A DNA stretch of 41,249 nt, from contig JAQWBQ010000029.1 of the NCBI GenBank assembly GCA_028706295.1, positions 1 through 41,249 of the forward strand. Direction: 5' to 3'. The translations under genes were made by a program, and so were the position numbers. Positions within the stretch are counted from its first letter, which is position 1. Every line of letters starts with the position of its first letter. Shown here piece by piece: positions 2,004 to 34,084 of the stretch. The stretch is from Bacteroidales bacterium (lineage in GTDB: Bacteria > Bacteroidota > Bacteroidia > Bacteroidales > FEN-979). The notes below the pieces were generated by a model. That model was not told the origin of the DNA and ran no database searches. It saw only the letters and a list, made by a program, of their open reading frames with translations.

Positions 2004-2201
2004 GTTTCGCGTTTCGCGTTTTGCGTTTCGCGTTTCAGAGTTTCAGGGTTTCAGAGTTTCAGGGTTCAAGGATTAAAATTTTTCATTTTCACATCAGCAC
2101 ATTCTCAAATCTTCAAATCCTCAAATCGTTTTCTGTTTTCCGTTTTCCGTTTTCAACTTTCCATTGTCCATTGTCCATTCTTGTCCGCTCTTCGTCTAAC
2201 T
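2004..2201. repeat. Word-repeat array A (intergenic, 7- and 8-nt phase)
   Basis: This array fills the gap between two minus-strand genes. From 2004 it reads gtttcgc, gtttcgc, gttttgc, gtttcgc; then octamers gtttcaga and gtttcagg alternating from 2032 to about 2071; then octamers of the cttcaaat type near 2105-2127; then a heptad run gttttct, gttttcc, gttttcc, gttttca, actttcc, attgtcc, attgtcc. Its right end (2183-2201) is the reverse complement of a 19-mer in the array at 25145-25196. It overlaps the TAG stop of the DUF1801 gene at 2196-2198. Confidence 0.8.
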
Positions 2202-2660
2202 TTTCCTTCTCAAAAACTTCTCCTCATAGGTCTTGATCCAGTCTTCCACTGATATTTTCGCCACAAGTTCCCCGATCAGTTCATAGGGGATATCTCCACT
2301 TTTTCTGAACCGGATGCAACTTTTCCCAACATTCGGTTTTTTGCCGTTCCGCATGGTAACCGCATCGATAAACCAATCGTAAAGAGCCTGATCGGCATAC
2401 ATCCCCATGTGATAGAACGAAATGTCATTTTTTTGTGAGGCAAATCCCATGAAAGGAAGGGATACGTTCGGATCACATTGGTATCCCTGGGGATAAATTG
2501 ACTTCGGCACTACGTAGCCGGGCATGCCATAACCCATCTCTTCCTTGAAACCTTCCGGAAGATTATCAAGAATCGTATTCCTTAGTTTCACCAGGGCTTC
2601 TTTCCGATCCTCCGGAACCTCGGCCATATATTCGTCGACTGTTTTTGCTGTTGATTTCAT
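2196..2660 (-). CDS. DUF1801 domain protein (YdhG-like)
   Basis: 154 codons from ATG at 2660. Family signs are the N-terminal helix TVDEYMAEVPEDRKEALVKL, the segment EEMGYGMPGYVV, the core strands FASQKNDISFYHMGMY, and KSCIRFRKSGDIPYELI near the C-terminus. DUF1801 proteins are small cytosolic proteins of unknown role, structurally related to iron-chaperone/frataxin-like folds in some annotations. There is no signal peptide. The final codon and TAG stop lie in the edge of word array A. The gene starts about 70 nt downstream, on the same strand, of a degraded methylase fragment. Confidence 0.8.
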   Translation of the reverse strand: MKSTAKTVDEYMAEVPEDRKEALVKLRNTILDNLPEGFKEEMGYGMPGYVVPKSIYPQGYQCDPNVSLPFMGFASQKNDISFYHMGMYADQALYDWFIDAVTMRNGKKPNVGKSCIRFRKSGDIPYELIGELVAKISVEDWIKTYEEKFLRRKS

Positions 2661-2730
2661 GAATGGGTTGATTTGATGGATGTGTAAATTCAGGAACGGT
2701 CAGTTTGATCGCCTCGGCCGGGAAAGTATA

Positions 2731-2946
2731 CTTACGGGTTGCCGGATCGTATTCGCTCAAAAACGTCTCATAGAAATGAACGACCGGATCTTCCCCTCTC
2801 CCTGCCCGATAATACTGATGGAGGATGTTATTTACATTGGTCGCGTTAAGCACTTCGGCAATATCATCAACCATCACCTCCATGTGTGGTGGCGCATCAC
2901 CCTGCGAAGCGGTGGCATAAATGGCTTTCAGATAATTCGAAATCAT
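2731..2946 (-). pseudogene. Relic of a type ISP/IIG restriction-modification DNA methylase (N-6 adenine methylase)
   Basis: The frame from ATG at 2946 gives about 72 residues with the pattern MVDDIAEVLNATNVNNIL followed by GEDPVVHFYETFLSEYDP and ATRK. This matches the segment just before the methylase motif in large single-chain R-M enzymes, where the family reads DPVVHFYE-FL--YDP-LR--RGVYYTP. Here the match stops at ATRK: the YYTP motif and all catalytic motifs are missing, and the frame then runs out of register into the DUF1801 gene. A TGA at 2989-2991 interrupts the frame upstream. I read it as a leftover of a deleted R-M gene. Similarity was judged by eye. Confidence 0.55.
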
Positions 2947-3078
2947 TTCAGGATCAATAATAAGAATACGGGGCGGAATGCAATGAAATCATGTAGCCAA
3001 GGTACGAAAATTCCGCGAATGATTGGTAATGTAACCTGCTGCACGATTGTCGCTATTTCCCGGCAAAATGATTTTCAT

Positions 3079-3086
3079 TATTTTTG
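3079..3086 (+). promoter_or_regulatory. Candidate -7 promoter box (TAnnTTTG) for the DUF1338 gene
   Basis: TATTTTTG matches the Bacteroidota -7 consensus TAnnTTTG. It would give a leader of about 50 nt before the ATG at 3144. No clear -33 TTG lies 19-21 nt upstream, so this is a partial match. Confidence 0.35.
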
Positions 3087-3102
3087 ATGAAATTTTTAAA
3101 AC

Positions 3103-3116
3103 TGTGACAGTTCACC
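3103..3116. promoter_or_regulatory. Small dyad TGTGA-N4-TCACC, possible Crp/Fnr-type operator
   Basis: TGTGA CAGT TCACC is a near-perfect inverted repeat with the 4-nt spacer of Fnr-type sites. It lies just downstream of the candidate start point of the DUF1338 gene. A binding role is inferred only from shape and spacing. Confidence 0.25.
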
Positions 3117-3143
3117 AAATTGAAACAATTAACCTGAAATTAT

Positions 3144-3950: not shown

Positions 3951-4086
3951 TTGATCCTGCTCCGAAAAACAGATATTAATGAATTGTATCCTGTCTGAAA
4001 AAAGGCATGTAACTGATTGCAAAAACGCTTCGAATTCAGTCAGCGTCCTGTTTTTCGTGAAAATTGGTTTTGGGAACAAACTCTTG

Positions 4087-5736
4087 ATGCCGGTTTTTAA
4101 CCGGAAACCCGGTTGCGGTTTCGCTTGCGTTTTCACATCCATCCTGTCGTTGTGGATCCTCACCGGTTCCTGTACGCAGGGCAGGCAGTTTACCCGGGAA
4201 GCTTTTACGGCGTTACCGAAGCCTGGCATCATCCATTCAACCATCGTTTGCCGGAGCGATCACTCCCGGTCCTATGCACTGCTGATCCCCGGAAGCTTCG
4301 CCGATTATCCGACTGCGTTGAAAACGCCGGATTATGATACCGCAAGGGTACCACTGTTCCCGCTGATCATCGCCTTTGATCCGCACGGGGCCGGTTCACT
4401 GCCACTTGAGCGGTATAAGTCGCTGTCCGAACGGTTCGGCTATCTGATGGTGGGTTCCAACGACATAAAAAATGGTTTGCCGGTCGACACGACGCAGAAA
4501 ATTATCAGGACCCTTGTTCAGGAAATCGTTACGACTTATCCGGTCGACACCGGCAGGGTTTACCTGATGGGATTTTCGGGTGGCGCACGGGTGGCGTCGC
4601 TTACCGGCCTCTACTTTCTTAAAGTACGCGGTGTGATTGGTTGTGGAGCCGGTTTTTCGGGAAACGGATATGCCCCGCCATTTCAATTCGATTATTACGG
4701 GATGGCCGGATGGGGGGACTTCAATGTCGGGGAGTTATTGTCGCTTGAAAAGCCCCTGCGTGAAGCGGGATTCCGTCATCATATCGCTACCTGGCCGGGA
4801 ATTCACGAATGGCCGCCAGAAGAAGAGATGGAAAAGGCTTTCCGCTGGATCACTACGAATGCCATGCGCGACCGACAGATTCTTCCCGACACAGCCCTTA
4901 CGAACCTCATTGCCCGTGAATCGGATCTGGAAATATCGACGAACCTCCGGAAAGAATATCTGCCGGATGCCCTGGCTGTCTGCCGGTTTGCCCTGTCGTG
5001 CCTTCACGACCTGTCGCCGCTCTCATCCTTTACCCAATTCATGGATTCCATCACCCACAGTTCGCTTTATATCCGTCAACAGCAATACAGAGAATCGTTG
5101 ATGAGGAAGGAAGAAACGGAACGGCAACAGTTGATGGATGCGGTTCTCAGTAAAGATATGGGTTGGTGGAAGGAATGGAAAGTTAATATGGCGACGAAAA
5201 ACAAAGGGGGAAGCGGGAAGGATCAAGGATCAAAGATCAAGGATCAAGGGAAAAGTGAGAAGGAGGAAGGAAGAAGGAGGAATGAAGAAAGAGAAAGTGT
5301 GCATGGGAAGGGGGAACCGGAGAACTGTGGCCGGAAAATGCCAGAGGATGTGAGCCGGGAAACACATGATGTAGATTTCTTTTTCCGTGAAGATACCCTG
5401 TATAACCGGCGGATGCTCGCATTCATGGGCCTTTACTGCTACATGCAGTCGGGCTCAGAACTGTCGAAAGGGAGCGATCCGACTGCCGCGAAGGTGATCG
5501 ATATCTACGAACTTATCGAGCCTCAAAATCCGGAAGCCAATTATTTGCGGGCACGGGTATATGCCCGGCAGGGTAAGCAGGATTTGGCACTTAAACAATT
5601 GAACATGGCCATTGTAAAAGGATTTAATGATATCGCCCGAATGGAACGCCAGGAAGAGTTTATAGCGCTGAAAAATGATCTGGAATTTAAGGATATTGAA
5701 AAACGGCTAAACAATCAAAAAGTAATAACAAGATAA
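4087..5736 (+). CDS. Exported alpha/beta-hydrolase-like protein with C-terminal TPR
   Basis: The frame opens at 3979, but I prefer ATG at 4087 because it puts the signal peptide at the N-terminus (core FACVFTSILSLWIL, then TGSC, an imperfect lipobox), giving 549 residues. An alpha/beta-hydrolase domain spans about 30-270: strand FPLIIAFDPHG, nucleophile elbow GFSGGAR with Ser164, and a late catalytic-type histidine in GIHEWP (His240). It resembles the PHB-depolymerase/dienelactone-hydrolase group. Residues 371-405 are an in-frame word-array insertion rich in Lys, Glu, Gly and Arg. The C-terminus (about 455-535) has TPR-like helices (NPEANYLRARVYARQGKQD). The substrate is unknown; a peptidase or esterase acting outside the cytoplasm is plausible. 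Confidence 0.7.
   Translation: MPVFNRKPGCGFACVFTSILSLWILTGSCTQGRQFTREAFTALPKPGIIHSTIVCRSDHSRSYALLIPGSFADYPTALKTPDYDTARVPLFPLIIAFDPHGAGSLPLERYKSLSERFGYLMVGSNDIKNGLPVDTTQKIIRTLVQEIVTTYPVDTGRVYLMGFSGGARVASLTGLYFLKVRGVIGCGAGFSGNGYAPPFQFDYYGMAGWGDFNVGELLSLEKPLREAGFRHHIATWPGIHEWPPEEEMEKAFRWITTNAMRDRQILPDTALTNLIARESDLEISTNLRKEYLPDALAVCRFALSCLHDLSPLSSFTQFMDSITHSSLYIRQQQYRESLMRKEETERQQLMDAVLSKDMGWWKEWKVNMATKNKGGSGKDQGSKIKDQGKSEKEEGRRRNEERESVHGKGEPENCGRKMPEDVSRETHDVDFFFREDTLYNRRMLAFMGLYCYMQSGSELSKGSDPTAAKVIDIYELIEPQNPEANYLRARVYARQGKQDLALKQLNMAIVKGFNDIARMERQEEFIALKNDLEFKDIEKRLNNQKVITR
5197..5301 (+). repeat. Word-repeat array B, inside a coding region and in frame
   Basis: Fifteen consecutive 7-nt words all begin with AA in one unbroken register, for example aaggatc (5218), aaggatc, aaagatc, aaggatc, aagggaa, aagtgag, aaggagg, aaggaag, aaggagg, aatgaag, aaagaga, aagtgtg. 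Total length is 105 nt, exactly 35 codons, so the frame of the hydrolase gene is kept. The peptide is charged and low in complexity, between the hydrolase domain and the TPR. Confidence 0.8.
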
Positions 5737-6087
5737 TTCAGGTGGTCTGATTAAAGGACAAATTCGAGATTGGCTTTGCCGTACTCCGCTTCGGTCCGGT
5801 TCAAATATTCAAATATAAAATACAAAATGTAAAATGCAAAACTGAGTGTAGTGAAGTACCATATTTGCGAGATAAAAAACGAATATTGTCTGATTGATCG
5901 ACTTATTATCAAAAGGCATCTGACCTGTAAAATTCGTGTATTTTCTCAGCGGTACCTCGTGTATTTTACTCTGATTATCTGGGTAAATAATATCCCGGAG
6001 GTACACAGAGAATGTTGGGAAACAAGAATGTTTGTGAAAATAGGCAGGACAGGTCGGTCATCATAGGAATTTAAGATTTTATATGCA
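5737..6087. other. 351-nt intergenic region, AT-rich
   Basis: Apart from word array C (5800-5841), I see no gene, RNA or convincing promoter. A 71-codon frame at 5851-6066 has no recognisable features and reads like noise. Confidence 0.5.
5800..5841. repeat. Word-repeat array C (intergenic)
   Basis: Six in-phase 7-nt words: ttcaaat, attcaaa, tataaaa, tacaaaa, tgtaaaa, tgcaaaa. The last word resembles the aaatgca word that opens both in-gene arrays of the next gene. Confidence 0.7.
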
Positions 6088-9000
6088 ATGAATAAAGATA
6101 ATTTCCAGGATCAGATTGAGAAACTCCGGGTCGGCTTTGAAGGAGAGATCTTTCTGGATGAAGCAAGCCGCATCCTTTATGCAACCGACGCCTCTGCCTA
6201 CCGGGAAAAACCGTTGGGAGTAGCCCGTCCCCGCCATGCCGCCGACATTTCCCGGCTGATCGCCTTCGCCCGGGAAACCGGCAACCCGTTGATCCCCCGG
6301 ACAGCCGGCACTTCGCTGGCCGGCCAGGTGGTCGGAAACGGGCTGGTGGTCGACGTGTCCCGTTATATGACCGCCATCCTTGAATTCAATGCCGAAGAAC
6401 GCTGGGTCAGGGTTCAACCGGGGGTGATCCTCGATGAGTTGAACGCCTTCGCATCCCGTCATGGCCTCTTCTTTGGACCCGAGACCAGCACCTCGAGCCG
6501 CTGCATGATGGGCGGGATGGTCGGGAACAACAGTTGCGGCGCCCATTCGATCCTCTATGGCAGCACCCGCGACCATGTGATTTCTGTTAAAGGATTTTTA
6601 AGCGATGGGTCGGAAGTTGAATTCAGGGATCTGACGTCGGAAGAATTTCAGGAAAAATGTTCCGGTGAAACCCTTGAAAACAAGATTTACCGGCAGATCC
6701 TGGAGATTCTTTCCGATCCGGTCAACCAGGAAGAGATCCGGAAGGAGTACCCCGATCCGCGGATACATCGACGGAATACGGGATATGCACTGGATTTGCT
6801 GCTGGGGATGGAACCGTTTTTTCAAGAAATGCAAAATGCAAAATGCAAAATGCAAAATGCAGATTCAGACATGAGGCATTGGCCATTAGGTATTAGGGAA
6901 AAACAATCAGGTAATCAGTCAGTCGATCAATCAATCAATCAATCAATCAGTCATTCAGTCATTCAGTCATTCAATCTGGCCAAACTCATCTCAGGTTCTG
7001 AGGGGACACTGATGTTCATGACCGAGATCAAACTGAACCTGGTGCCGTTGCCGCCCAAGGAGAAGGCGTTAATCTGTGTTCATTGCCGCACGGTAGAGGA
7101 GTCGCTCGAGGCCAACCTGGTGGCGCTGAAATACAGTCCGGGTTCGGTCGAGCTGATGGATAAGCCCATCATGGATTGCACGAAAGACAACATCACCCAG
7201 CGGCAGAACCGATTCTTCATCGAGGGGGATCCGGGCGCCATCCTGATCATTGAATTTGCCCGCGAAACCAGGGCTGAGATCATGACAATCTACCATGACC
7301 TGGTGGAGGAGATGAAATCACAGGGCCTGGGCTGCCATTACCCGATCGTTTTTCCTCCCGATTTGAAAAAAGTATGGGATCTCCGGAAAGCCGGGTTGGG
7401 CGTGCTTTCCAACTATCCTGGCGACCGGAAACCCGTGCCGGTCATCGAAGACACCGCGGTTCACCCGGAAAACCTGCCAGCGTATATCGATGAATTTAAC
7501 AAAATGATGGCCGGGCTGGGACTCGCTTGTGTGTATTACGCCCATATCGGTTCCGGAGAATTACACCTCAGACCGGTGCTTAACCTGAAAGATCCCGGTG
7601 ATGTGGAGCTTTTTCATACCGTTGCCTTTGAAACTGCCAAAATTGTCAAGAAGTTCCGGGGATCTTTGTCAGGCGAGCATGGTGATGGAAGGCTACGCGG
7701 CGAATTCATCCCCTTCATGCTGGGAGAACACAATTATGGGCTTTTCAGGGAGATCAAGTCACTGTGGGATCCGTACCATATTTTCAACCCCGGCAAGATC
7801 ACTGATACGCCAAAAATGAATACCAGCCTGCGGTTTGAGCCCGGTAAGCCTGCCCGGGAGATCGCGACGGTTTTCGATTTCTCGCATAATCACGGTATTC
7901 TCCTTGCGGCGGAGCAGTGCAACGGTTCGGGCGACTGCCGCAATACCGTCATCACCGGACGGTGGATGTGTCCGTCGTACATGGCTGCCAAAGAGGAGAA
8001 CACCACCACACGGGCGCGGGCGAACATCCTCAGGGAATTCCTTACGAATTCCTCTAAAGAAAATCCTTTTGATCACAGGGAGATCTATGATGTGATGGAC
8101 CTTTGCCTGTCGTGCAAGGCCTGCAAGGCTGAATGCCCGTCGAATGTCGACATTGCCAAACTTAAAGCCGAATTCCTCCAGCATTACTACGATGCGAATG
8201 GCATTCCGCTCCGGTCGGGGCTTATCGCCAATATCACCTCCATCAATAAACTTGGAAGCATTGTTCCCGGTCTTTTCAACTTTTTCCAGAAGAACCGGTT
8301 TTTCTCAGGAATTACAAAAAATACTCTTGGCTTTGCCCAAAAACGCGACATTCCCCTGCTCTATTCGACAACGCTTAGGGCATGGGCTGCAAGACACGAC
8401 CAGGAATTGAATCAGCGAAACAAGGAGGTGAAAGCCACTTTTCAAGAGAACGCCGGTGCAGGAGCGGAACCGGAAAGTTCAAAGCTGGATTTGACGGTTT
8501 ACTTATTTGCCGACGAGTTCACGAATTTCAATGATGTAGAGATTGGCATTAAAGCCATCAAACTGCTGAATGCTTTGGGCTACCGCGTCATCATCCCCGA
8601 TCATGAAGAGAGCGGGCGGACGTTTCTGTCGAAAGGATTGATCCGGAAAGCGAAAAAGCTGGCCAATGCCAACGTTTCAAAGCTAAAGGACATGATAACC
8701 GCGGATACCCCACTAATCGGCATCGAACCCTCGGCCATTCTCACCTTCCGCGACGAATACCCCGATCTGGTCGATCCCGAACTGAAGGAAGCAGCCCTGA
8801 ACCTGGCAAAGCATGCAGTGATGTTTGATGAGTTTGTGGTGAATGAAATGCAAAATGCAAATATCAAATTCAAAGATCACTCAATCACTCAATCAATCAG
8901 TCAATCAATCAATCAGTCAACCAATCAATCAATCATTCATTCAGTCAATCAGTCAATCAATCAATTCTTCACCGACAAACCGTTAAAGATCCTCCTCCAC

Positions 9001-9318
9001 GGCCACTGTCACCAAAAGGCGCTGGCATCGGTCGAAACCACGAAAAAAATGCTGTCCATCCCCATCAACTACGAGGTAGAGGAAATTAAATCGGGGTGTT
9101 GCGGCATGGCGGGGTCGTTCGGCTATGAAAAGGAGCACTATGATCTGTCGATGAAAGTCGGCGAGCTGGTTTTATTCCCGGCGGTAAGGAAAGCCACCGA
9201 AGAGATGGTCATCGTCGCTCCCGGCACCTCCTGCCGTCACCAGATCAAGGACGGAACAGGCCGGAGGGCGTATCATCCGATCGAAGTAATGTATGATGCG
9301 CTGTTGGAAAAGGTCTGA
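6088..9318 (+). CDS. FAD-binding and Fe-S oxidoreductase, YdiJ/GlcD-GlcF fusion type (D-2-hydroxyacid dehydrogenase)
   Basis: 1076 codons from ATG at 6088. The order is that of E. coli YdiJ (1018 residues): FAD_binding_4 domain (PRTAGTSLAGQVVG, VGNNSCGAHSILYGSTRDH, GSEGTL), FAD-oxidase C-terminal domain (SGEHGDGRLRGEF, LWDPYHIFNPGKI), then a two-cluster ferredoxin-like domain (CNGSGDCR with MCPSYMA, and CLSCKACKAECPSNVDIAKLK) and the CCG domains (HGHCHQKAL, SGCCGMAGSFGYEKEHYD). Such enzymes oxidise D-2-hydroxyacids such as D-lactate or D-2-hydroxyglutarate and pass electrons to the respiratory chain. Two in-frame word-array insertions (residues 248-294 and 921-959) replace loops where relatives have few residues; all conserved motifs remain, so it is probably active. 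Its position near the HglS-like gene favours D-2-hydroxyglutarate. Confidence 0.88.
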   Translation: MNKDNFQDQIEKLRVGFEGEIFLDEASRILYATDASAYREKPLGVARPRHAADISRLIAFARETGNPLIPRTAGTSLAGQVVGNGLVVDVSRYMTAILEFNAEERWVRVQPGVILDELNAFASRHGLFFGPETSTSSRCMMGGMVGNNSCGAHSILYGSTRDHVISVKGFLSDGSEVEFRDLTSEEFQEKCSGETLENKIYRQILEILSDPVNQEEIRKEYPDPRIHRRNTGYALDLLLGMEPFFQEMQNAKCKMQNADSDMRHWPLGIREKQSGNQSVDQSINQSISHSVIQSFNLAKLISGSEGTLMFMTEIKLNLVPLPPKEKALICVHCRTVEESLEANLVALKYSPGSVELMDKPIMDCTKDNITQRQNRFFIEGDPGAILIIEFARETRAEIMTIYHDLVEEMKSQGLGCHYPIVFPPDLKKVWDLRKAGLGVLSNYPGDRKPVPVIEDTAVHPENLPAYIDEFNKMMAGLGLACVYYAHIGSGELHLRPVLNLKDPGDVELFHTVAFETAKIVKKFRGSLSGEHGDGRLRGEFIPFMLGEHNYGLFREIKSLWDPYHIFNPGKITDTPKMNTSLRFEPGKPAREIATVFDFSHNHGILLAAEQCNGSGDCRNTVITGRWMCPSYMAAKEENTTTRARANILREFLTNSSKENPFDHREIYDVMDLCLSCKACKAECPSNVDIAKLKAEFLQHYYDANGIPLRSGLIANITSINKLGSIVPGLFNFFQKNRFFSGITKNTLGFAQKRDIPLLYSTTLRAWAARHDQELNQRNKEVKATFQENAGAGAEPESSKLDLTVYLFADEFTNFNDVEIGIKAIKLLNALGYRVIIPDHEESGRTFLSKGLIRKAKKLANANVSKLKDMITADTPLIGIEPSAILTFRDEYPDLVDPELKEAALNLAKHAVMFDEFVVNEMQNANIKFKDHSITQSISQSINQSTNQSIIHSVNQSINQFFTDKPLKILLHGHCHQKALASVETTKKMLSIPINYEVEEIKSGCCGMAGSFGYEKEHYDLSMKVGELVLFPAVRKATEEMVIVAPGTSCRHQIKDGTGRRAYHPIEVMYDALLEKV
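6827..6969 (+). repeat. Word-repeat array D, first in-frame insertion in the YdiJ-like gene
   Basis: Five aaatgca words (6827-6861) are followed in the same 7-nt phase by gattcag, acatgag, gcattgg, ccattag, gtattag, then a G/A-rich joint and a 4-nt-period block of tcaa/tcag/tcat words to 6969. The extra coding part is about 141 nt (47 codons). It sits between GYALDLLLGMEPFFQ and FNLAKLISGSEGTL, where relatives have a short loop. Confidence 0.8.
8848..8964 (+). repeat. Word-repeat array E, second in-frame insertion in the YdiJ-like gene
   Basis: It opens with the same gaaatgcaaaatgcaaa string as the first insertion, passes through a caaattcaaag joint and ends in a long 4-nt-period block (tcaatcaatcag type) encoding Ser-Ile-Asn-Gln repeats. 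Length is 117 nt, 39 codons. It lies between MFDEFVV and DKPLKILLHGHCHQ, just before a CCG domain. Confidence 0.8.
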
Positions 9319-9337
9319 ACAGGATTTTCAGACTTTT
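9313..9337 (+). terminator. Weak intrinsic terminator overlapping the stop of the YdiJ-like gene
   Basis: GTCTGA (9313-9318) pairs with TCAGAC (9328-9333) around a 9-nt loop and is followed by TTTT. The TGA stop is inside the left arm. The stem is short. Confidence 0.4.
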
Positions 9338-9346
9338 GACACTGCC

Positions 9347-9859: not shown

Positions 9860-9972
9860 GGCCATAGGCATTTGGCAATAGGTATTAGGGGAAAAAACCA
9901 ATTCAAAATTCAAACCAGGCATTAATTAAGCCTTAAGAATTGACAATTGACAATTGTCCATTGTCTATTGTC
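9860..9972. repeat. Word-repeat array F (intergenic)
   Basis: Two in-phase heptad runs: ggccata, ggcattt, ggcaata, ggtatta (9860-9887), and aattgac, aattgac, aattgtc, cattgtc, tattgtc (9938-9972), joined by an attcaaaattcaaa segment. The ggtattagggg joint is shared with the in-gene array D and resembles array G. It lies between two minus-strand genes. Confidence 0.8.
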
Positions 9973-12440: not shown

Positions 12441-12464
12441 AAAGGGCAGCGAAGAAAAAATTGA

Positions 12465-12710
12465 AATTCAAAGAAGGGATTAGGGATTAGCGAATAGCGA
12501 TTAGGGGAAAGAATATTAATTCAAAATTCAAAGAAGGGATTAGGGATTAGCGAATAGCGATTAGGGAAAAAACATTAATTCAAAATTCAAAGAAGGGATT
12601 AGCGAATAGCGATTAGGGGAAAAAATATTAATTCAAAATTCAAATCAGGTACCAGGCAATAATAAAAATCTAATCACTCATTCACTCATTCACTCAATCA
12701 CTCAATAAAA
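12465..12710. repeat. Word-repeat array G between gldA and gldF (about 60-nt tandem unit)
   Basis: A unit of about 60 nt occurs about three times, starting near 12466, 12526 and 12585. Each contains in-phase heptads gggatta, gggatta, gcgaata, gcgatta, then a G/A-rich joint and attaattcaaaattcaaa. The third copy lacks exactly one gggatta word. A block with 8-nt period (tcactcat type) follows at about 12670-12708. The array nearly fills the gap before the gldF ATG at 12717. Confidence 0.85.
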
Positions 12711-16043: not shown

Positions 16044-16067
16044 TCAGGCAGGTTAATACCTGATCAC
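16035..16067 (-). terminator. Intrinsic terminator spanning both stop codons of a convergent gene pair
   Basis: GTGATCAGG (16040-16048) and CCTGATCAC (16059-16067) form a perfect 9-bp stem with a 10-nt loop. On the minus strand it is followed by TTTTT (16035-16039), giving a classic terminator for the giant surface-protein gene. The plus strand has only a weak T tract. The TGA of the DUF4340 gene and the TAA of the giant gene both lie inside the hairpin. Confidence 0.75.
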
Positions 16068-21821: not shown

Positions 21822-21883
21822 AACCTGTTAATTTTTTTTCAAATTTATTTGGAATTAGTCTGACTTAGTATTATTCTTTGATG

Positions 21884-21891
21884 TATTTTTG
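21884..21891 (+). promoter_or_regulatory. Candidate -7 box TATTTTTG for the Fnr-like regulator
   Basis: The sequence matches TAnnTTTG, 72 nt before the chosen ATG. No -33 TTG at 19-21 nt is seen, so support is partial. Confidence 0.3.
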
Positions 21892-21963
21892 TCGGGAAAA
21901 ACAGGAAATTTTACCTCTGATGAAAGGAAAGAATACACTATTTTGGTATCATAACCCTTGACT

Positions 21964-22665
21964 ATGGAACCGGATTGCATGAACCCGACCCGACACTGTA
22001 CTGGTTGTCAGGTTAAATCCCCGCTATTTTGTTTTTTAACGGATGAAGAATTGCTCTTGGTTGAAAAAAACCGGTTGACGGTCGAATTCAGGCAGGGTGA
22101 GACCATCCGGAAACAGGGCACTTCGATGACACATGTGATTTCTCTTAATGCAGGGTACGCAAAGCTTTACCTTGAAGGAGTCAGGAAAACCTCATCGATC
22201 CTGCAAATTGTAAAACCAACCAACTTTATCGGTGGACCTGGTTTGTATCTCGATCAAATTCATCACGTTACCGTATCAGCATTGACCGACACAACGGTAT
22301 GTTTTATCGGACTTCCGGTTTTTAAAACAATTATTGATGAAAATAAAGCTTTCAGGGACGCATTCCTTGCAGAGATAAGCAGAAATATTCTGGCAGGCTA
22401 TAATCGACTGTTATTTCTGGTTCAGAAACAGATGCCCGGAAGGATGGCAGATACCTTGCTTTATTTGTTTGATGAAGTTTACAAGTCAGAGAATATTCCC
22501 TTACACCTGACAAAACAAGATCTTGCCGAACTCTCCGGGATGTCGAAAGAAGGGGCGATTAAAGTTATCAGGGAATTTCAGAACGAAGAGATAATTTCCC
22601 TTTCAGATCGGGTAATGTCGTTACATAATCGGAATAAATTATTACAGATCAGTAAGGTAGGATGA
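21964..22665 (+). CDS. Crp/Fnr family transcriptional regulator with candidate Fe-S cysteines
   Basis: I start at ATG 21964 (MEPDCMNPTRHC), two codons inside a possible TTG start at 21958, giving 233 residues. A cyclic-nucleotide-binding-type beta-roll (FRQGETIRKQGTSMTHVISLNAG, TNFIGGPGLYL) is followed by the dimer helix and a C-terminal winged helix (HLTKQDLAELSGMSKEGAIKVIREFQNEEII). Four N-terminal cysteines (5, 12, 15, 23) and Cys113 in TTVCFIGLP recall the Fe-S ligands of E. coli FNR, whose internal ligand sits at an equivalent place. An oxygen- or NO-sensing role is therefore possible but not shown. The gene diverges from the giant T9SS gene, which could be a target. Confidence 0.85.
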   Translation: MEPDCMNPTRHCTGCQVKSPLFCFLTDEELLLVEKNRLTVEFRQGETIRKQGTSMTHVISLNAGYAKLYLEGVRKTSSILQIVKPTNFIGGPGLYLDQIHHVTVSALTDTTVCFIGLPVFKTIIDENKAFRDAFLAEISRNILAGYNRLLFLVQKQMPGRMADTLLYLFDEVYKSENIPLHLTKQDLAELSGMSKEGAIKVIREFQNEEIISLSDRVMSLHNRNKLLQISKVG

Positions 22666-22669
22666 TAAT

Positions 22670-22732
<63 letters not shown>

Positions 22733-22786
22733 ATTCACTTTTTCAGTAAATCACTCGTTCCTTATTTCAACTGTCCCTGCCAGGTC

Positions 22787-25090
22787 CTACTTCAGCCCTC
22801 TGTTCTCCAACAGTGCGTCGATCTTGGGTTCGTGGCCCCTGAAGTCGACATACATATCCATGGCCTCCTTTGATCCTCCTTTTTCAAGGATGCAGGTGCG
22901 AAAACGCTGCGCAGTCGCTTTGTCGAAAATATCCCCTTTTTCCTTGAAGGCCTGGAACGCGTCAGCATCGAGGACTTCGGCCCAGATGTAGCTGTAATAC
23001 CCGGCCGTGTATCCGCCTGTCATGGTATGCTGGAAGTAGGTCGAACGGTAGCGCGGCGGAATCTGCGGGATCAGCCCGATCCGTTTCATCGATGCGGCTT
23101 CAAAAGCCAGCACGTCGAGCCCCGGCGACGGATTCTTTTCATAAAACTTCTCACCCTCCTTCACCGCTTCAGCTTTTTTGATATCCTCACCTTCCCGGAC
23201 CTCTTCGGCAGGCGGTGCTTCGCGGTCGGAAGTGACCATTTCAGGACTTTTCTCTTTAGTTTTTACTTTAAAAACAGGCACTTCGGAAGCAGGCTTTGTT
23301 GCAGGTTCCTTCACGGCGCCTTCCGCTTTGATTTCCGGATAGCGGAAATGATAATCCATATCGAGGTACGATGCGGCAAGATATTCGGTTGTTTTGAAAC
23401 CCTGGCCAAATTTGCTGCTGTTTTGTATCTTTTCGACCAATTCGGCAGGAATTACGGCTCCGGTTTGATAATGCTTCGCGTAAACCTTCAGGACTTCGGG
23501 TTCGAAGGCCCAGTGTTCCATGATTTGCGATGGAAGTTCGACAAAATCGCGCGGAACCCCCGAAATACCGTCATATCTGACATTTCTCATCAGACCGGCA
23601 AGTGCGTGTCCAAATTCGTGAAAGAAGGTCTCTGCTTCATCGGGAGTCAGAAGTGCAGGTTGATCGCCCGAAGGGGCTGAGAAATTGCAAACGATGGTCA
23701 TGACGGGCGCGACCCGCTTGCCGTTCTCGTACTTTTGCGACCGGTAACTGCCGCACCAGGCTCCTCCCCGCTTGCTGGCCCTGGGATGAAAATCGAGGTA
23801 CAGAACGCCAAGATGGCTTCCGTCAGCCTCCTTGCATTCGTAGAGCTTAACATCCGTGAAGTATTTGGGCGCCCCGGCAACCTCGGTAAAGGTGATCCCG
23901 TAAAGTTTCCGTGCAACATAAAAGACGCCTTCCCTGACGTTATCCAACTTAAAATAGGGTTTCAGTGCCTCCTCATTCAAATCAAATTTTTTCTGCATGA
24001 TCTTGTTGCTGTAATACCGCCAGTCCCAACCTTCAAGTTGAAAATCCTGACCCTCTTCCCGGATCAGCGACTGCATATCGTCGGCCTCCCTGCGCGCCAT
24101 TTCAAGGGCGGGGGTCCAAATCTGATCAAGCAGGTTGTAAACATTTTCGGGCTTTTTCGCCATGCGGTCATCCAAAGCATAGGCGGCATAAGAATCGAAA
24201 CCCAGCAGCGCGGCTTTCTGCTTGCGGAGCGGGATCAGTCTGGCAATGATGGCCTTGTTGTCCTTGTCGTTATTGTTGTTGCCGCGACTGATGTAAGCGC
24301 TGAAGATCTGCTCCCGGTATTTCCTGTTGTCAGAGAACTGTAAAAACGGCATCACACTGGGATTCTGGAGTGTGAAAACCCATTTGCCTTTGGTAGCCTC
24401 CGACCGGGCGCCGGCTTCCAGCGCACTGTTGATCTGCTCTTTCGAAAGTCCTTCCAGATACTCCTCCCGGTCGAGGATCAGCTTATAGGCATTGGTTTCC
24501 GACAACAGATTTTGGCCAAAAGTAAGTTGTAACATGCTGATCTCGCTATTCAATTCGCGGAGTTTCTCTTTATCCTCATCGCGAAGATTTGCTCCGCTCC
24601 TGACAAATCCCTTGTAAGTCTCTTCAACCAGCCGCCTCTGATCGGGTGCGAGTTTCGCCATCTCCGGGCTCTTGTACACCGCCTTGATCCGGGTGAATAG
24701 CCCCGGATTCAGACTGATGTCATCACTGTGTTTCGACATCAGCGGCGACAACCGGCGGGCGATCTCCTGCATTGCATCGTTGGTGTTGGCCGAATTCAAA
24801 CCGTAAAAAACGGAACTGACTTTATCGAGCAGCGCCCCGCTCCGATCCAGGGCTGCGATGGTGTTTTCGAAGGTTGGTGTCGCCGGGTTGCTCACGATGG
24901 CTTCAATTTCCGCCTGTTGTTGCTTCATTCCTTCCATAAAGGCCGGCATATAATGATCATTCCGGATCTGTTCGAAAGGAGGCACCCCGAATGGCGTTTT
25001 CCATTCGCGGAAAAAAGGATTATCGGTTTGGGCGAGCATTGAAATCGCGGTCATGGTCATGGTGATAAAGAGGGTGATCGTTTTTCTCAT
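22787..25090 (-). CDS. dcp: M3 family metallopeptidase (peptidyl-dipeptidase Dcp type)
   Basis: 767 codons from ATG at 25090. A signal peptide (TLFITMTMTAISMLAQ) points to a periplasmic enzyme. The mature start NPFFREWKTPFGVPPFEQI is typical of Bacteroidota Dcp. The zinc motif HEFGH is at His491, Glu492 and His495. The C-terminal YRSTYFQHTMTGGYTAGYYSYIWAEVLDAD-type region carries the substrate-binding Tyr/Gly cluster. Such enzymes remove C-terminal dipeptides from peptides. An unusual Lys/Glu/Pro-rich insertion of about 70 residues (about 585-655) lies in the catalytic domain between YLDMDYHFRYP and DVLAFEAASMKRIGLIP. A TACCTTTG promoter box lies upstream. Catalytic motifs are intact, so it is likely functional. 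Confidence 0.92.
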   Translation of the reverse strand: MRKTITLFITMTMTAISMLAQTDNPFFREWKTPFGVPPFEQIRNDHYMPAFMEGMKQQQAEIEAIVSNPATPTFENTIAALDRSGALLDKVSSVFYGLNSANTNDAMQEIARRLSPLMSKHSDDISLNPGLFTRIKAVYKSPEMAKLAPDQRRLVEETYKGFVRSGANLRDEDKEKLRELNSEISMLQLTFGQNLLSETNAYKLILDREEYLEGLSKEQINSALEAGARSEATKGKWVFTLQNPSVMPFLQFSDNRKYREQIFSAYISRGNNNNDKDNKAIIARLIPLRKQKAALLGFDSYAAYALDDRMAKKPENVYNLLDQIWTPALEMARREADDMQSLIREEGQDFQLEGWDWRYYSNKIMQKKFDLNEEALKPYFKLDNVREGVFYVARKLYGITFTEVAGAPKYFTDVKLYECKEADGSHLGVLYLDFHPRASKRGGAWCGSYRSQKYENGKRVAPVMTIVCNFSAPSGDQPALLTPDEAETFFHEFGHALAGLMRNVRYDGISGVPRDFVELPSQIMEHWAFEPEVLKVYAKHYQTGAVIPAELVEKIQNSSKFGQGFKTTEYLAASYLDMDYHFRYPEIKAEGAVKEPATKPASEVPVFKVKTKEKSPEMVTSDREAPPAEEVREGEDIKKAEAVKEGEKFYEKNPSPGLDVLAFEAASMKRIGLIPQIPPRYRSTYFQHTMTGGYTAGYYSYIWAEVLDADAFQAFKEKGDIFDKATAQRFRTCILEKGGSKEAMDMYVDFRGHEPKIDALLENRGLK

Positions 25091-25123: not shown

Positions 25124-25144
25124 AAAAAAACGGGAACAGGTTGG

Positions 25145-25196
25145 ATGAAGAGTTAGACGAAGAGCGGACGAAGAGTTGTACGAAGAGTTGTACGAG
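25145..25196. repeat. Word-repeat array I (intergenic, 12-nt period)
   Basis: Four tandem words of 11-12 nt: gaagagttagac, gaagagcggac, gaagagttgtac, gaagagttgtac. The 19-mer at 25151-25169 is present as its reverse complement at 2183-2201 in array A. It lies just upstream of the M3 peptidase promoter box and downstream of the rnz stop. Confidence 0.75.
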
Positions 25197-28085: not shown

Positions 28086-28199
28086 TCAAAAATTGCTTTG
28101 TGGATGCGGTATTCCCGCTATCCGGGTTAAACATTTTATGGATTGGACGGGATTTCGATAAAGAACGATACTCCTTTTTCACCCGACAAAAAAGGGCTG

Positions 28200-28230
28200 C
28201 AAAGGTACGAGGAATGTTTTTAATATACAA
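28200..28230 (-). promoter_or_regulatory. rpsA promoter, TTG-N20-TACCTTTG
   Basis: On the minus strand TACCTTTG (28200-28207) matches the Bacteroidota -7 consensus, and TTG (28228-28230) sits 20 nt upstream as the -33 element. This is the best two-part promoter in the window. It implies a leader of about 105-115 nt before the rpsA ATG, which could hold autoregulatory structure; I did not identify one. Confidence 0.7.
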
Positions 28231-28282
28231 CAAGCTATGATTTTACGAATCACGAAATATGTAATTCTCATCTCCGTTTCCT

Positions 28283-28290
28283 TACATTTG
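28283..28290 (+). promoter_or_regulatory. Candidate -7 box TACATTTG for the YchF-like gene
   Basis: An exact TAnnTTTG match 19 nt before the ATG at 28310. There is no clear -33 TTG. Confidence 0.45.
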
Positions 28291-28309
28291 CAGTTTAAAA
28301 CTTCAGAAG

Positions 28310-29401: not shown

Positions 29402-29403
29402 CA

Positions 29404-29438
29404 AAATTCCTATTGCCTATTGCCTATTGCCTAAACAA
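29404..29438. repeat. Word-repeat array J between convergent genes
   Basis: In-phase heptads aaattcc, then tattgcc three times, then taaacaa. On the minus strand the words read ggcaata, as in array F. The TAG stop of the LytTR gene (29431-29433) lies in the array, and the YchF stop is 2 nt to its left. Confidence 0.75.
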
Positions 29439-30189: not shown

Positions 30190-30263
30190 ATGATATTTCT
30201 GTTGATGTAAATCCTGTCCGGCATCACCTGTTCCGAAAACAATGGGTCATTCGGGAAAAATCG

Positions 30264-30271
30264 TAATTTTG
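30264..30271 (+). promoter_or_regulatory. Candidate -7 box TAATTTTG for hydE
   Basis: An exact TAnnTTTG match 56 nt before the ATG at 30327. The -33 element is not evident. Confidence 0.4.
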
Positions 30272-30326
30272 CTTAATAAACAAGATTACCGGTTTTTTGC
30301 TAAGATATTAAGATAATTTGTTCCTG

Positions 30327-31418
30327 ATGAGCTTTGTTGAAAAAATTTTTGAAAAAGCTGTTTTCTCCAGGGATGACCTGATTTTCCTGTTAAATACATT
30401 GGGGGACGAGCGGTTGCGGTTGTTTGAGATGGCCGCTGAAACAAAGGCCCGGTTCGTTGGCAGGAAAGTTTATTTCAGGGGGTTGCTGGAATATTCGAAC
30501 ACTTGTTCCAAGAATTGCTACTATTGCGGGATCCGTGCCGGGAACAAGCGCTATGTGCGTTACCGTATGACCGATTCCGAAGTCATGGAAGCGGTGCAGT
30601 ACGCGTATGTGAACCGGTTTGCTTCGATCGTCATCCAGTCGGGTGAGCAGAACAACCAGACCTTCACCCGGAAGATTGAAAAGTTACTCCGCGAAATCCA
30701 TGCGTCGACCAACGGCGAATTGCATGTAACGCTATCCCTGGGCGAACAGTCGGAAGAGACCTACCGGCGGTGGTTCGAAGCGGGCGCACACCGGTATCTC
30801 CTGCGCATCGAGGTATCGAATCCCGACCTCTACCTCAAACTTCATCCAAACACCCCCCGTCACAGTTACACGGCTCGGTTGAGCGCCCTCCGCACCCTGC
30901 GGTCGATCGGCTACCAGGTTGGTACGGGGGTGATGATCGGCCTCCCCTTTCAAACCATCGGCGACCTTGCCGATGACCTGCTGTTCTTCCGGGATTTTGA
31001 CATCGATATGGTCGGCATGGGACCGTATATCGAACATGAAGATACGCCCCTTTACCGCTACCGCGAAACCCTGCTGCCGCTCACAGGACGCTTTGACCTG
31101 TCGCTTAAAATGGTCGCCATCCTCCGCATCATGATGAAAGATATCAACATCGCTGCTACCACGGCCATGCAAACCATTGATCCGCAGGGCCGCGAAAAAG
31201 CGTTGCTTGCCGGGGCGAATGTCATCATGCCCAACCTGACCCCGGTCAGGTACCGGCAGGATTACCTGCTCTACGAAAATAAACCCTGTCTGGATGAAGA
31301 AGCATCAGCCTGCCAGACCTGCCTCGAAGCTCGCATCCGGATAGCCGGCGACACCATCGCCTACGGAGAGTGGGGCGATTCGAGGCACTTTCAGAAGCGA
31401 AGGACAATGGACAAGTGA
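30327..31418 (+). CDS. hydE: HydE, radical SAM maturase of [FeFe]-hydrogenase
   Basis: I start at ATG 30327 (MSFVEKIFEK); a TTG three codons upstream is less likely. 363 residues. The radical SAM cluster motif is Cys60-x3-Cys64-x2-Cys67 in YSNTCSKNCYYCGIR, followed by RYVRYRMTDSEVMEAV. HydE hallmarks include GTGVMIGLPFQTIGDLADDL, DIDMVGMGPYIEHEDTPL and ATTAMQTIDPQGREKALLAGA. C-terminal cysteines (ASACQTCLEARI) may hold a second cluster. HydE works with HydF and HydG to build the H-cluster; neither they nor a hydrogenase is in the window. The TGA stop and the last codons lie in word array K. Confidence 0.88.
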   Translation: MSFVEKIFEKAVFSRDDLIFLLNTLGDERLRLFEMAAETKARFVGRKVYFRGLLEYSNTCSKNCYYCGIRAGNKRYVRYRMTDSEVMEAVQYAYVNRFASIVIQSGEQNNQTFTRKIEKLLREIHASTNGELHVTLSLGEQSEETYRRWFEAGAHRYLLRIEVSNPDLYLKLHPNTPRHSYTARLSALRTLRSIGYQVGTGVMIGLPFQTIGDLADDLLFFRDFDIDMVGMGPYIEHEDTPLYRYRETLLPLTGRFDLSLKMVAILRIMMKDINIAATTAMQTIDPQGREKALLAGANVIMPNLTPVRYRQDYLLYENKPCLDEEASACQTCLEARIRIAGDTIAYGEWGDSRHFQKRRTMDK

Positions 31419-31510
31419 CAATTGATAATGGACAATTGAAAATGGAAAACGGTAAACGTCCTATTCGCTAATCCCTATTCGCTATTCGCTAATTTGAATT
31501 ATTTCGAATG
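31406..31510. repeat. Word-repeat array K, from hydE stop to rlmD start
   Basis: Fifteen consecutive 7-nt words keep one register: aatggac, aagtgac, aattgat, aatggac, aattgaa, aatggaa, aacggta, aacgtcc, tattcgc, taatccc, tattcgc, tattcgc, taatttg, aattatt, tcgaatg. The second word contains the hydE TGA and the last contains the rlmD ATG. Words of the second half are reverse complements of those in array G. Confidence 0.85.
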
Positions 31511-32935: not shown

Positions 32936-32979
32936 ACCCCGGTAGATCATCGCATCGCTGTTCCACCTTACGTGTCGGT

Positions 32980-33507
32980 TCACCCGCGATCAGTGAAGTC
33001 AGCAATTTTTTTCAGCAGGATTTCGGTCAGTTGTTGGGGTGAAAACGCACCGGCATCGATGATGATATCAGCCTGACCGTAAAAAAACTCGCGTTCGGCC
33101 AGTTGCTCGCTGATTTTCTCGGGAAGGGATTCAGGATCAAGATCCTTCAGTATTGGTCTCTTTTTCCTCAGGTTTTGCAACCGTTCGGCCAGCATTCCGG
33201 CAGGCCACCGGATGTAGACCGCGATCCCGTGTTCCCGGATAAACTTCATATTATCGAAAAAACAGGGCGTACCTCCGCCCGTTGAGATCAGCACATCGTC
33301 GAACGCCCCGGTCTCATGTAAAAGGTCGCGTTCCATACTCCGGAATAAGTTCTCATCGTATTTATCAAAAAAATCGAGAATGCTGATCCGGTACCGTTCT
33401 TCGAAATGGTGGTCGAGGTCGAGAAATTGAAAACCAAGGCAGGAGGCAAGGTTTTTACCGACGGTTGATTTTCCCGACCCCATGTAGCCGATAAGGTAAA
33501 TGCGCAT
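32980..33507 (-). CDS. aroK: Shikimate kinase
   Basis: 175 codons from ATG at 33507. It is the usual length for a shikimate kinase: Walker A GYMGSGKSTVGKNLA (residues 8-22), the shikimate-binding DLDHHFE acidic segment, STGGGTPC (Walker-B-like glycine loop), and a LID region with RKKRPIL and the conserved arginine. It phosphorylates shikimate in the chorismate pathway in the cytosol. Chorismate also feeds MqnA, encoded about 5.5 kb away. It is divergent from the DUF1573-yajC operon and convergent with rlmD, 44 nt separating the coding regions. Confidence 0.94.
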   Translation of the reverse strand: MRIYLIGYMGSGKSTVGKNLASCLGFQFLDLDHHFEERYRISILDFFDKYDENLFRSMERDLLHETGAFDDVLISTGGGTPCFFDNMKFIREHGIAVYIRWPAGMLAERLQNLRKKRPILKDLDPESLPEKISEQLAEREFFYGQADIIIDAGAFSPQQLTEILLKKIADFTDRG

Positions 33508-33533
33508 GGATGTAAAAGTATAAAGATTTTTCC

Positions 33534-33541
33534 TACCTTTG
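33534..33541 (+). promoter_or_regulatory. Candidate -7 box TACCTTTG for the DUF1573-yajC-ybbR-coaE operon
   Basis: An exact TAnnTTTG match 22 nt before the DUF1573 ATG; the leader would be about 15 nt. A -33 TTG is not evident. Confidence 0.5.
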
Positions 33542-33563
33542 CAGCCTTAAAGTTGCTTTCCGG

Positions 33564-34046
33564 ATGAAGTGTAAAAAGCTGACATTGATCCTGTTTTTAG
33601 CCGTTTCCTTATCGCTCCCCGGATGCGGTGACCGCAACACAGACGGGCAGGAGGAGATTCCGGCCGATGTAGTTAACAATCCGAATACTGCCAGCGGCAA
33701 GGGAGACCGAAGCATCCTGCCACAGATCACCTTTGAAGAGACCGAGCATGATTTCGGGAAGATCCTTGAAGGAGAATCGGTTGCGATTTCCTTCCATTTC
33801 ACCAATACCGGCAAGTCGGATCTGATCATCGCCGAAGTAAGCACCTCCTGCGGGTGCACGGTTCCCTCCTACCCCAAAACCCCCATTCGTCCGGGTGAAA
33901 AAGGCGAGGTGAAGGTATCGTTCAACAGCAACGGACGCCGTGGATTCCAGTCGAAGAATGTTCTGGTGGTTGCCAACACCCAACCCAACACCACCATGCT
34001 CAGAATTAAAGCCCAGGTAGTCAACCCACGCGGTGGCAACCAATAA
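33564..34046 (+). CDS. DUF1573 domain lipoprotein
   Basis: 160 codons from ATG at 33564. A lipoprotein signal (LILFLAVSLSLPGC, Cys at about 21) is followed by one DUF1573 domain: FEETEHDFGKILEGESVAISFHF, TNTGKSDLIIAEVSTSCGCT, YPKTPIRPGEKGEVKVSFNS and the terminal strand TTMLRIKAQV. DUF1573 is an ASH-like immunoglobulin fold abundant in Bacteroidota; its role is unknown. In many Bacteroidota it heads the same row of genes seen here (yajC, ybbR-like, coaE). Its TAA stop touches word array L. Confidence 0.88.
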   Translation: MKCKKLTLILFLAVSLSLPGCGDRNTDGQEEIPADVVNNPNTASGKGDRSILPQITFEETEHDFGKILEGESVAISFHFTNTGKSDLIIAEVSTSCGCTVPSYPKTPIRPGEKGEVKVSFNSNGRRGFQSKNVLVVANTQPNTTMLRIKAQVVNPRGGNQ

Positions 34047-34049
34047 ATC

Positions 34050-34084
34050 AATCATAAATCGTAAATCATAAATCGTAAATATGG
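34050..34084. repeat. Word-repeat array L, directly before the yajC start
   Basis: Five in-phase heptads: aatcata, aatcgta, aatcata, aatcgta, aatatgg. The last word contains the yajC ATG. Confidence 0.75.

What the first reader, a model, noticed from the sequence alone, without database searches (positions are those of the whole stretch)
2004..34084. A dispersed family of phase-locked 7-nt 'word' arrays at twelve loci
Arrays at 2004-2201, 5197-5301, 5800-5841, 6827-6969, 8848-8964, 9860-9972, 12465-12710, 22670-22732, 25145-25196, 29404-29438, 31406-31510 and 34050-34084 are built from short A/T-anchored words, mostly heptamers (aatggac, aattgac, aatggaa, aaatgca, tattgcc, gcgaata, gggatta, aaggatc). 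Different words follow one another without losing the 7-nt register, which a simple single-unit slippage repeat would not give. The same words recur at unlinked loci in both orientations. Heptanucleotide STRRs of cyanobacteria are the nearest precedent I know, but those repeat one word. The cause (replication slippage plus conversion, a template-copying process, or a bound protein reading two helical turns per 21 nt) is open.
Basis: partly seen in the sequence, partly recalled or inferred. Interest (0 to 1): 0.8.

Follow-up and report, generated by a model that had tools for sequence, protein, structure and literature searches.

The report
Lineage-specific, ordered heptamer/octamer repeat arrays
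Between its genes, and sometimes inside them, this bacterium carries short stretches built from 7- or 8-letter DNA words, each repeated a few times and strung together in a preferred order that recurs around the genome, while related bacteria do the same with largely different words.

Summary
The arrays are real, but not all 7-nt and not phase-locked as a whole. A 7-nt run is found at 11 of the 12 listed loci (at 8848-8964 only in its first bases; that locus is mainly 4/8-nt); 25145-25196 is 12-nt; 2004-2201, 6827-6969 and 12465-12710 mix 7 and 8. Outside the window: (1) neighbouring words lie on one strand (165:9 and 96:4 in two species) and in a preferred order. (2) Between sister species arrays change by whole words: 14 of 25 indels in 7-nt arrays are multiples of 7; indels are about 55 times denser than outside. 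(3) The word set is lineage-specific: 34 of 53 words shared with the nearest species, 1-3 with five other relatives sampled. (4) At one codon position of a flavoprotein gene 14 of 29 mapped genomes (own included) carry in-frame 7/8-nt arrays, mostly with different words. Best reading: slippage-driven short minisatellites whose words drift by single-base changes and spread between sites by ectopic exchange. A telomerase-like reverse transcriptase is not supported. Mixed heptamer arrays and 7-nt indels were in print (MacGregor 2015); order, lexicon turnover and same-site replacement were not in what I read.

The parts
2004..2201 (+). composite string between two minus-strand genes: GTTTCGC (7) > GTTTCAGR (8) > ACATCAGC/CTCAAATC (8) > GTTTTCC (7) > ATTGTCC (7) > CTCTTCGTC (12-nt word, one copy)
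   Evidence: parts of the string at other G000 loci, e.g. C88 90% over 121 nt, C23, C95, C99
5218..5297 (+). AAGGATC (7) then GAAGGAG-type array, inside ORF 3979-5736; sister species G006 has 42 nt (6 words) more
5800..5841 (+). AAATACA/AATGTAAAATGCA drifting 7-nt array, intergenic; no unit change against G006
6827..6976 (+). in-frame insert (site A) in the FAD-oxidase/FeS gene: AAATGCA x5, CATTAGG-like piece, then AATC/AGTC/ATTC (4/8-nt)
   Evidence: same length as in G006
8846..8965 (+). in-frame insert (site B) in the same gene: AAATGCA x2.3 then AATC/ACTC/AGTC (4/8-nt); periodic in 2 of 30 genomes read, G000 and G006
6088..9318 (+). host gene of both inserts, 1076-aa FAD-linked oxidase with 4Fe-4S domain
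   Evidence: Pfam PF02913, PF01565, PF13534
9860..9975 (+). string of CATTAGG/CAATAGG, GGGGAAAAAA, AATTCAA and AATTGTC words, intergenic; G006 carries a longer ordered string here
12464..12706 (+). about three copies of a 53-60-nt block (AATTCAA words + AGGGATT/AGCGAAT words + GGGGAAAAAA), then AATCACTC (8)
   Evidence: (period 60 and 53); similar stretches elsewhere in G006
22670..22728 (-). AATGGAC/AATTGAC then AATGGAA x5, 7-nt, between convergent ORFs (reverse complement of ATTGTCC/ATTTTCC)
   Evidence: it lies beside a block that is absent from G006
25140..25195 (-). 12-nt word GTTGGACGAAGA (reverse complement of the CTCTTCGTC word); G006 has 58 nt more
29409..29433 (-). CCTATTG x3.6 (7-nt), fills the space between two converging ORFs; G006 has 14 nt more
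31402..31491 (-). GGACAAT/TGACAAT/GGAAAAT run (7-nt) then CTATTCG/CTAATCC run (7-nt), ending 16 nt before an ATG; G006 has 28 nt more in the first run
34050..34080 (+). AATCATA/AATCGTA (7/14-nt) between the stop of ORF 33564-34046 and the ATG at 34081; no indel against G006

Best explanation
These are short minisatellites with units of 7 or 8 nt (also 4 and 12) that fill intergenic gaps and tolerant protein linkers of a Bacteroidota lineage. SHOWN: many of them differ in length by whole units between sister species; neighbouring words often differ by one base, and a one-base difference separates some 8-nt words from 7-nt words in the same array; the same words, and in G000/G006 the same ordered same-strand strings of words, occur at many unlinked loci; the word set is lineage-specific in the samples taken; strings at an orthologous site can be present, absent or swapped for another string. 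INFERRED: replication slippage with a 7-8-nt quantum multiplies a word, point changes create new words inside the array, and word-homology-driven ectopic recombination or conversion copies arrays and strings to other array-bearing or look-alike sites, so a genome-wide lexicon evolves in concert and turns over between genera. No dedicated enzyme and most likely no function: host tolerance decides where they persist (rarely in divergent promoter spacers; in genes as stop-free in-frame linkers).
For: Whole-unit change: 14 of 25 indels of 4 nt or more in lag-7 arrays are multiples of 7 (1/7 expected, P about 1e-6); 19.6 indels/kb in arrays against 0.35/kb outside over 107.8 kb aligned. Drift: GTTTTCC > ATTTTCC > ATTTTCA > ATTGTCC; 8 to 7 in G028 (AATAGCGAA to AATACGAA, L410; ATAGCGAA to AAGCGAA, L402). 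Dispersal: 25 of 53 G000 words at 3 or more places; strand of adjacent different words same 165, opposite 9 (G000) and 96:4 (G006), leaving out the near-palindromic ATTG word, with it a further 38:4 and 25:1; order concordance 456 of 514 and 237 of 263 pairs against maxima of 71.6% and 78.7% in 500 permutations each. Exchange: at G000 L048:10294-10559 and its G006 counterpart different strings sit between homologous flanks; a 272-nt gap sequence with a string in G006 is 3 nt in G000; a G006 rearrangement joins AATCGTTTTCC of the array to gene sequence that follows AATCGTATTCC in G000. Lexicon: G000-G006 share 34 of 53/56 words, G028-G034 (one genus) 8 of 39/14, other pairs 0-4. Placement: 29.8 array bases per intergenic kb against 0.66 per coding kb in 248 kb chosen blind; 12 of 164 intergenic clusters in divergent spacers against 103 of 562 spacers (P about 7e-6). 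No RNA structure: mean z 0.27 and 0.18 for 19 strings.
Against: Why 7 and 8 dominate over 5, 6, 9-11 is not explained by slippage alone. Three orthologous arrays (5800, 6827, 34050) show no unit change, so slippage is not fast everywhere. 11 of 25 indels in lag-7 arrays are not multiples of 7 (some may be alignment effects), and in 8- and 12-nt arrays the fit is weaker: 10 of 20 multiples of 4, 1 of 6 multiples of 12. Ectopic exchange is inferred from a few sites; gain or loss could not be told apart, since no syntenic outgroup turned up among the genus matches listed. In G028 one array of the AGCGAAAT type has 27 further matches in its genome with no shared flanks or common string seen by eye in 11 of the 12 loci printed (the twelfth print missed its array), so what it recombined with is unclear. 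G006 stretches and the second G000 batch were picked because they hit arrays of the window or of L097, which inflates order and sharing figures; of the blind G000 stretches only 8 multi-word chains in 4 of 20 stretches test it (words other than the near-palindromic one on one strand in all 8). Word order is not absolute: in G000 58 of 514 pairs go against the majority.
Confidence: 0.57

Rival explanations
1. Purely local slippage: every array arose on its own from a chance seed; recurring words reflect the polymerase's preference for certain words.
For: Whole-unit indels; 7-nt repeats were the commonest long simple repeats in most repeat-rich prokaryote genomes surveyed (Mrazek 2007, as told in passages of PMC4679880); other lineages use other words: in an even Bacteroidota sample AATKGAC x3 is in 6 of 197 other genomes and its reversed control in 3.
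Against: Sister species share most sampled words but the other relatives sampled hardly any; ordered same-strand strings with identical junctions at many unlinked loci are not expected from independent seeds.
Confidence: 0.1
2. A non-autonomous mobile element: the ordered string is a transposed unit of a few hundred nt whose segments later slipped.
For: Preferred order and strand, conserved junctions such as CTCAAATCGTTTTCC (7 places in G000, 12 in G006, 0 in 59 other relatives); one site with a string in G006 and almost nothing in G000.
Against: Among 19 copies with the same junction the left and right ends differ (by eye); no conserved ends or target duplication noticed, but no dedicated search for them was run; in G028 7 of 11 readable loci show a single word (by eye).
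Confidence: 0.17
3. Template-directed synthesis by a telomerase-like reverse transcriptase (as in DRT10), with products captured at breaks.
For: 7-8-nt units, lineage-specific words, arrays with unrelated flanks in G028 (by eye); DRT10 makes tandem-repeat cDNA, 9-nt in the best-studied system, from an RNA template (PMC12632851, passages read).
Against: No PF00078 match at E 0.001 in G000 or G028 (95.6% and 96% complete) nor in G020; 5 of the 8 genomes searched have one, G006 in two contigs. Many different words per genome would need many templates.
Confidence: 0.05
4. Selected regulatory or protein-binding sites (first reader's 21-nt reading, or translational sites as proposed for TAACTGA).
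For: Strand coherence; two arrays of the window end within 20 nt upstream of an ORF's ATG (31402-31491, 34050-34080).
Against: Arrays lie nearer to stops than starts (medians 33.5 against 67.5 nt in G000, 32.5 against 53.5 in G006, 0.5 against 19.5 in five others) and are depleted in divergent spacers; words differ between relatives at one site; no RNA structure; no Rfam match in the window.
Confidence: 0.08

Closest known systems
TAACTGA direct repeats of Beggiatoaceae, Cyanobacteria and some Bacteroidetes (MacGregor 2015, PMC4679880: abstract, passages and section 10 read)
   Same: Intergenic heptamer arrays, with other heptamers beside them in Microcystis, Gramella/Aequorivita and Elizabethkingia; indels mostly in 7-nt steps between two Cyanothece strains
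   Different: TAACTGA dimers absent from the window and my samples; here many words, 8- and 12-nt units, preferred word order, in-frame inserts at one site in many relatives; no start-codon preference
Cyanobacterial STRR heptanucleotide repeats (three in Calothrix, from passages of PMC4692102; otherwise recalled)
   Same: 7-nt units, dispersed
   Different: Other phylum; ordered strings not mentioned in what I read
GGGNATC / GGGGAYT G-quadruplex heptamers of Xanthomonas and Nostoc (PMC4692102, passages read)
   Same: 7-nt units, intergenic bias, length variation between close relatives
   Different: One G-rich word type; most words here are A/T-rich and not G-run words
DRT10 tandem-repeat cDNA (PMC12632851, passages read)
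   Same: Short tandem units made in a bacterium, with word set by a template
   Different: cDNA, 9-nt unit in Eco3DRT10; no RT of PF00078 found in this genome

Membership tests
short minisatellite / simple-sequence repeat changed by slippage | length differs between orthologous sites by whole units | tested here: met
   lag-7 arrays: 14 of 25 indels multiples of 7, P about 1e-6; weaker for 8-nt (10 of 20 multiples of 4) and 12-nt arrays (1 of 6)
cyanobacterial-type heptanucleotide STRR | 7-nt unit throughout | tested here: not met
   8-, 4- and 12-nt words in the same strings
   76 multi-word chains in G000 samples, 48 in G006
TAACTGA repeats | the word TAACTGA in tandem | tested here: not met
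   0 dimers in the window and in the samples of 7 genomes
TAACTGA repeats | placement just upstream of starts (BOGUAY type) | tested here: not met
   median 67.5 nt to start, 33.5 to stop in G000; simple ORF calls of my own
transposon / MITE / REPIN | defined ends, inverted terminal repeats, target duplication | tested here: inconclusive
   19 copies inspected by eye, ends vary; no dedicated search for ends or duplications
telomerase-like RT product (DRT10) | reverse transcriptase gene in the genome | tested here: not met
   PF00078: 0 in G000 and G028, both draft genomes; models specific to UG RTs were not run
structured RNA element | folding more stable than shuffled sequence | tested here: not met
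   mean z 0.27 / 0.18 for 19 strings; Rfam 0 matches in the window
any of these | rate of change in living cells | not testable with these tools
   needs cultures or time series

The most novel reading that the evidence does not exclude
A new class of dispersed genomic element defined not by a fixed sequence but by an ordered, strand-coherent string of 7-8-nt words, each with free copy number, made by an unknown copying process that stutters with a 7-8-nt step and spreads a lineage-specific lexicon, including into proteins as exchangeable in-frame linkers.
Probability: 0.2. Interest if true: 0.8.

Novelty: new variant of a known kind. Interest (0 to 1): 0.55.

Why it matters
Heptamer repeats have long been noted in bacteria; in what I read there is no account of how words arise, spread and are replaced. 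This lineage offers one: sister species with shared ordered strings, other relatives with different lexicons, and one codon position where about half of the mapped genomes carry in-frame word arrays. It makes the 7-8-nt step and the concerted spread of words testable, and it suggests that linker insertions in proteins can be swapped by a DNA-level process. For annotation it explains odd linkers such as QSINQS and QNAKCKMQNA.

Tried and rejected
In an evenly drawn Bacteroidota sample it is in 6 of 197 other genomes and the reversed control in 3 (one with 30 copies), so no special sharing is shown. In 16 genomes picked because they hold the word, the control is 0 in 14, which is ascertainment.

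Phage carriage of the string: the junction pattern gave 38 viral stretches; all 38 lack 7/8-nt periodicity around the match and look by eye like gene sequence. 80 viral-labelled stretches hold the AATKGAC word; I did not test whether they are phages.

Word recurrence proved from the window alone: strict test gives 1 of 55 pairs. Reverse transcriptase. Structured RNA. Telling gain from loss at the present/absent site: the genus members listed match the upstream part of the query, apart from array matches and one 202-nt match in G009, so it stays open. Ordered strings in another genus: of 12 G028 loci printed, 7 show a single word, 2 other words beside it, 2 a drift from 8 to 7, and in one the print missed the array (by eye); not tested further. 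Row dropped: G001 at site A (unmapped).
Full report
What the window is. The window is contig C53 of a 3.99-Mb, 149-contig, 95.6% complete draft genome, G000.

The observation. Tandem Repeats Finder reports arrays overlapping all twelve listed places. A lag scan (17 of 21 matches) gives 15 segments at lag 7, five at lag 8, three at lag 12, two at lag 4 and none at lags 5, 6, 9, 10, 11; five Markov shuffles of 297 kb give none at any lag. Two listed arrays are not mainly heptameric: 8848-8964 (4/8-nt) and 25145-25196 (12-nt); three mix 7 and 8. In 248 kb of the same genome chosen blind, lags 7 and 8 give 9 segments each, lag 4 five, lag 12 three, lags 6 and 10 one each, lags 5, 9 and 11 none; in 322 kb of five relatives, partly chosen through hits, lag 7 gives 46, lag 8 20, lag 9 three, lags 6 and 12 two each, lag 10 one, lags 5 and 11 none. 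The arrays are clustered: many blind stretches have none.

Where they sit. In the blind stretches 29.8 array bases per intergenic kb against 0.66 per coding kb (simple ORF calls of my own). In the window some arrays fill the whole space between ORFs (29409-29433, 34050-34080). Across G000, G006 and five relatives 12 of 164 intergenic clusters lie in divergent spacers, against 103 of 562 spacers; 41 further clusters lie inside ORFs (13, 14 and 14).

Change between sister species. G006, same genus, is syntenic with most of the window at 92.6-95.7% DNA identity in the long blocks, 72% in one short block. Eleven of the twelve array sites are occupied in both; the twelfth lies beside a block missing in G006. 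Over 12 orthologous regions (107.8 kb aligned) indels of 4 nt or more occur at 19.6/kb in arrays and 0.35/kb outside; in lag-7 arrays 14 of 25 are multiples of 7; in lag-8 arrays 10 of 20 are multiples of 4; in 12-nt arrays 1 of 6 is a multiple of 12. Substitutions are 10.9% in arrays, 4.8% outside. Three sites show no unit change (5800, 6827, 34050).

Ordered strings. Parts of the 2004-2204 string recur at many places of G000 and G006, for example 90% alike over 121 nt and 95% over 65 nt. Tokenising 15-16 word types shows that adjacent different words mostly lie on one strand: 165 against 9 in G000 (76 chains), 96 against 4 in G006 (48 chains), leaving out the near-palindromic ATTG word; pairs with that word give 38:4 and 25:1. 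Word order is concordant in 456 of 514 and 237 of 263 pairs; 500 within-chain permutations reach at most 71.6% and 78.7%. For example GTTTTCC precedes ATTGTCC 22:1 and 17:0. Nineteen copies with the CTCAAATC-GTTTTC junction were read: interior order is largely kept, copy numbers vary, and the outer ends differ. Most of these stretches were chosen because they hit arrays of the window or of L097, which favours this result; in blind stretches only 8 chains test it, all with their other words on one strand.

Swaps and losses. At G000 L048:10294-10559 and its G006 counterpart two different strings stand between homologous flanks. At G000 L253:10383 three bases stand where G006 has 272 nt holding a string with a MITE-like insert. 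Further differences of this kind: L258, L264, L265, L272. In G006 the 2004 string is cut at AATCGTTTTCC and joined to gene sequence that in the window follows AATCGTATTCC, which suggests recombination at a look-alike site.

Lexicon. Exact-dimer words: G000 53, G006 56, shared 34; G028 39 and G034 14 (one genus), shared 8; every other pair shares 0-4. Samples differ in size and G006 was chosen by hits to the window, so the contrast is indicative. The junction CTCAAATCGTTTTCC is in G000 (7 places) and G006 (12) and in 0 of 59 other relatives, its reversed control once. Matches to the CTCAAATC array do occur in several genus mates (G003, G008, G009, G011, G012, G016 in the listed part), so a word can be older than the string. 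An AGCGAAAT-type array of G028 has 27 further matches in that genome.

One codon position, many words. The 1076-aa flavoprotein gene carries two in-frame inserts. Of 51 genomes with a match (61 searched) 30 loci were handed out and read; site A (residues 243-296) could be mapped in 29: 14 have 7/8-nt periodic inserts, stop-free and in frame, among them AAGTCAC (G019), AAATTGG + ACCCGCCC (G012), ACACGGG (G009), AACTGCG (G028), ACCCTCG + ACATCACC + ACCACGGC (G034); 15 have no periodic insert by this test. G021, G031 and G034 share the ACCACGGC word while their first word differs; G000 and G006 share theirs. Of the site A words, some recur elsewhere in the same genome's sample (e.g. AAAATGC and AATGACTG in G000), others were seen only there (AAGTCAC in G019). 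Site B is periodic in 2 of 30.

What it is not. No PF00078 reverse transcriptase in G000 or G028, while 5 of 8 genomes searched have one; no extra RNA folding; no Rfam match in the window; no TAACTGA dimers; the string junction matched viral contigs only in sequence without arrays.

Reading. Slippage explains length change but not why relatives use different words, nor the shared order. Spread of arrays and strings between sites by homology-driven exchange explains both and fits the swaps; the step itself is inferred. The 7-8-nt preference remains open; the earlier suggestion that 7 nt mirrors the polymerase contact length (Mrazek 2007, as told in passages of PMC4679880 and PMC4692102) is neither supported nor excluded here.

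Literature. Six searches over open PubMed Central papers found MacGregor 2015 and Rehm 2015 as nearest; in the parts read I saw no report of a preferred word order, lineage lexicons or same-site replacement. Subscription papers are mostly not held.

Noticed in passing
L097:2397-2668 (G006) and L258:4720-4969 (G000): A small dispersed element with near-inverted ends (TTATCTCCTTTGAGCAAGT ... ACTTGCTTAAAAGAGATAA), MITE-like, nested in or beside word arrays.
   Followed up: no
L140, L141, L149 (Oscillospiraceae / Dysosmobacter MAGs): AATTGAC arrays that are paired, in some loci, with the inverted word array across a short GC-rich hairpin-like middle (by eye); looks like a MITE with heptameric ends.
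   Followed up: no
window 15806-22789: About 7 kb with a 1922-aa PKD/GEVED protein bearing a type IX secretion tail; G006 has 277 nt here, with a short GTCCGC word run near its end.
   Followed up: partly
window 35587-38953: TonB-dependent receptor region without alignable counterpart between flanks shared with G006 (3367 against 3335 nt).
   Followed up: no
G183 (unnamed Bacteroidota): 30 matches of the reversed control word x3 (CAGKTAA...), i.e. another lineage with its own heptamer word.
   Followed up: no
L296, L300, L302, L339, L347 (viral-labelled contigs): Dense 7-nt word arrays in contigs labelled viral, with words drifting in register (AATTGAC, AATTCAC, AATTCAT, AATTCGT); may be misbinned bacterial contigs.
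   Followed up: partly
G272 (Anabaena sp. UHCC 0204, via L158): 136 matches of AATKGAC x3 against 7 of the reversed control, a cyanobacterial case.
   Followed up: no
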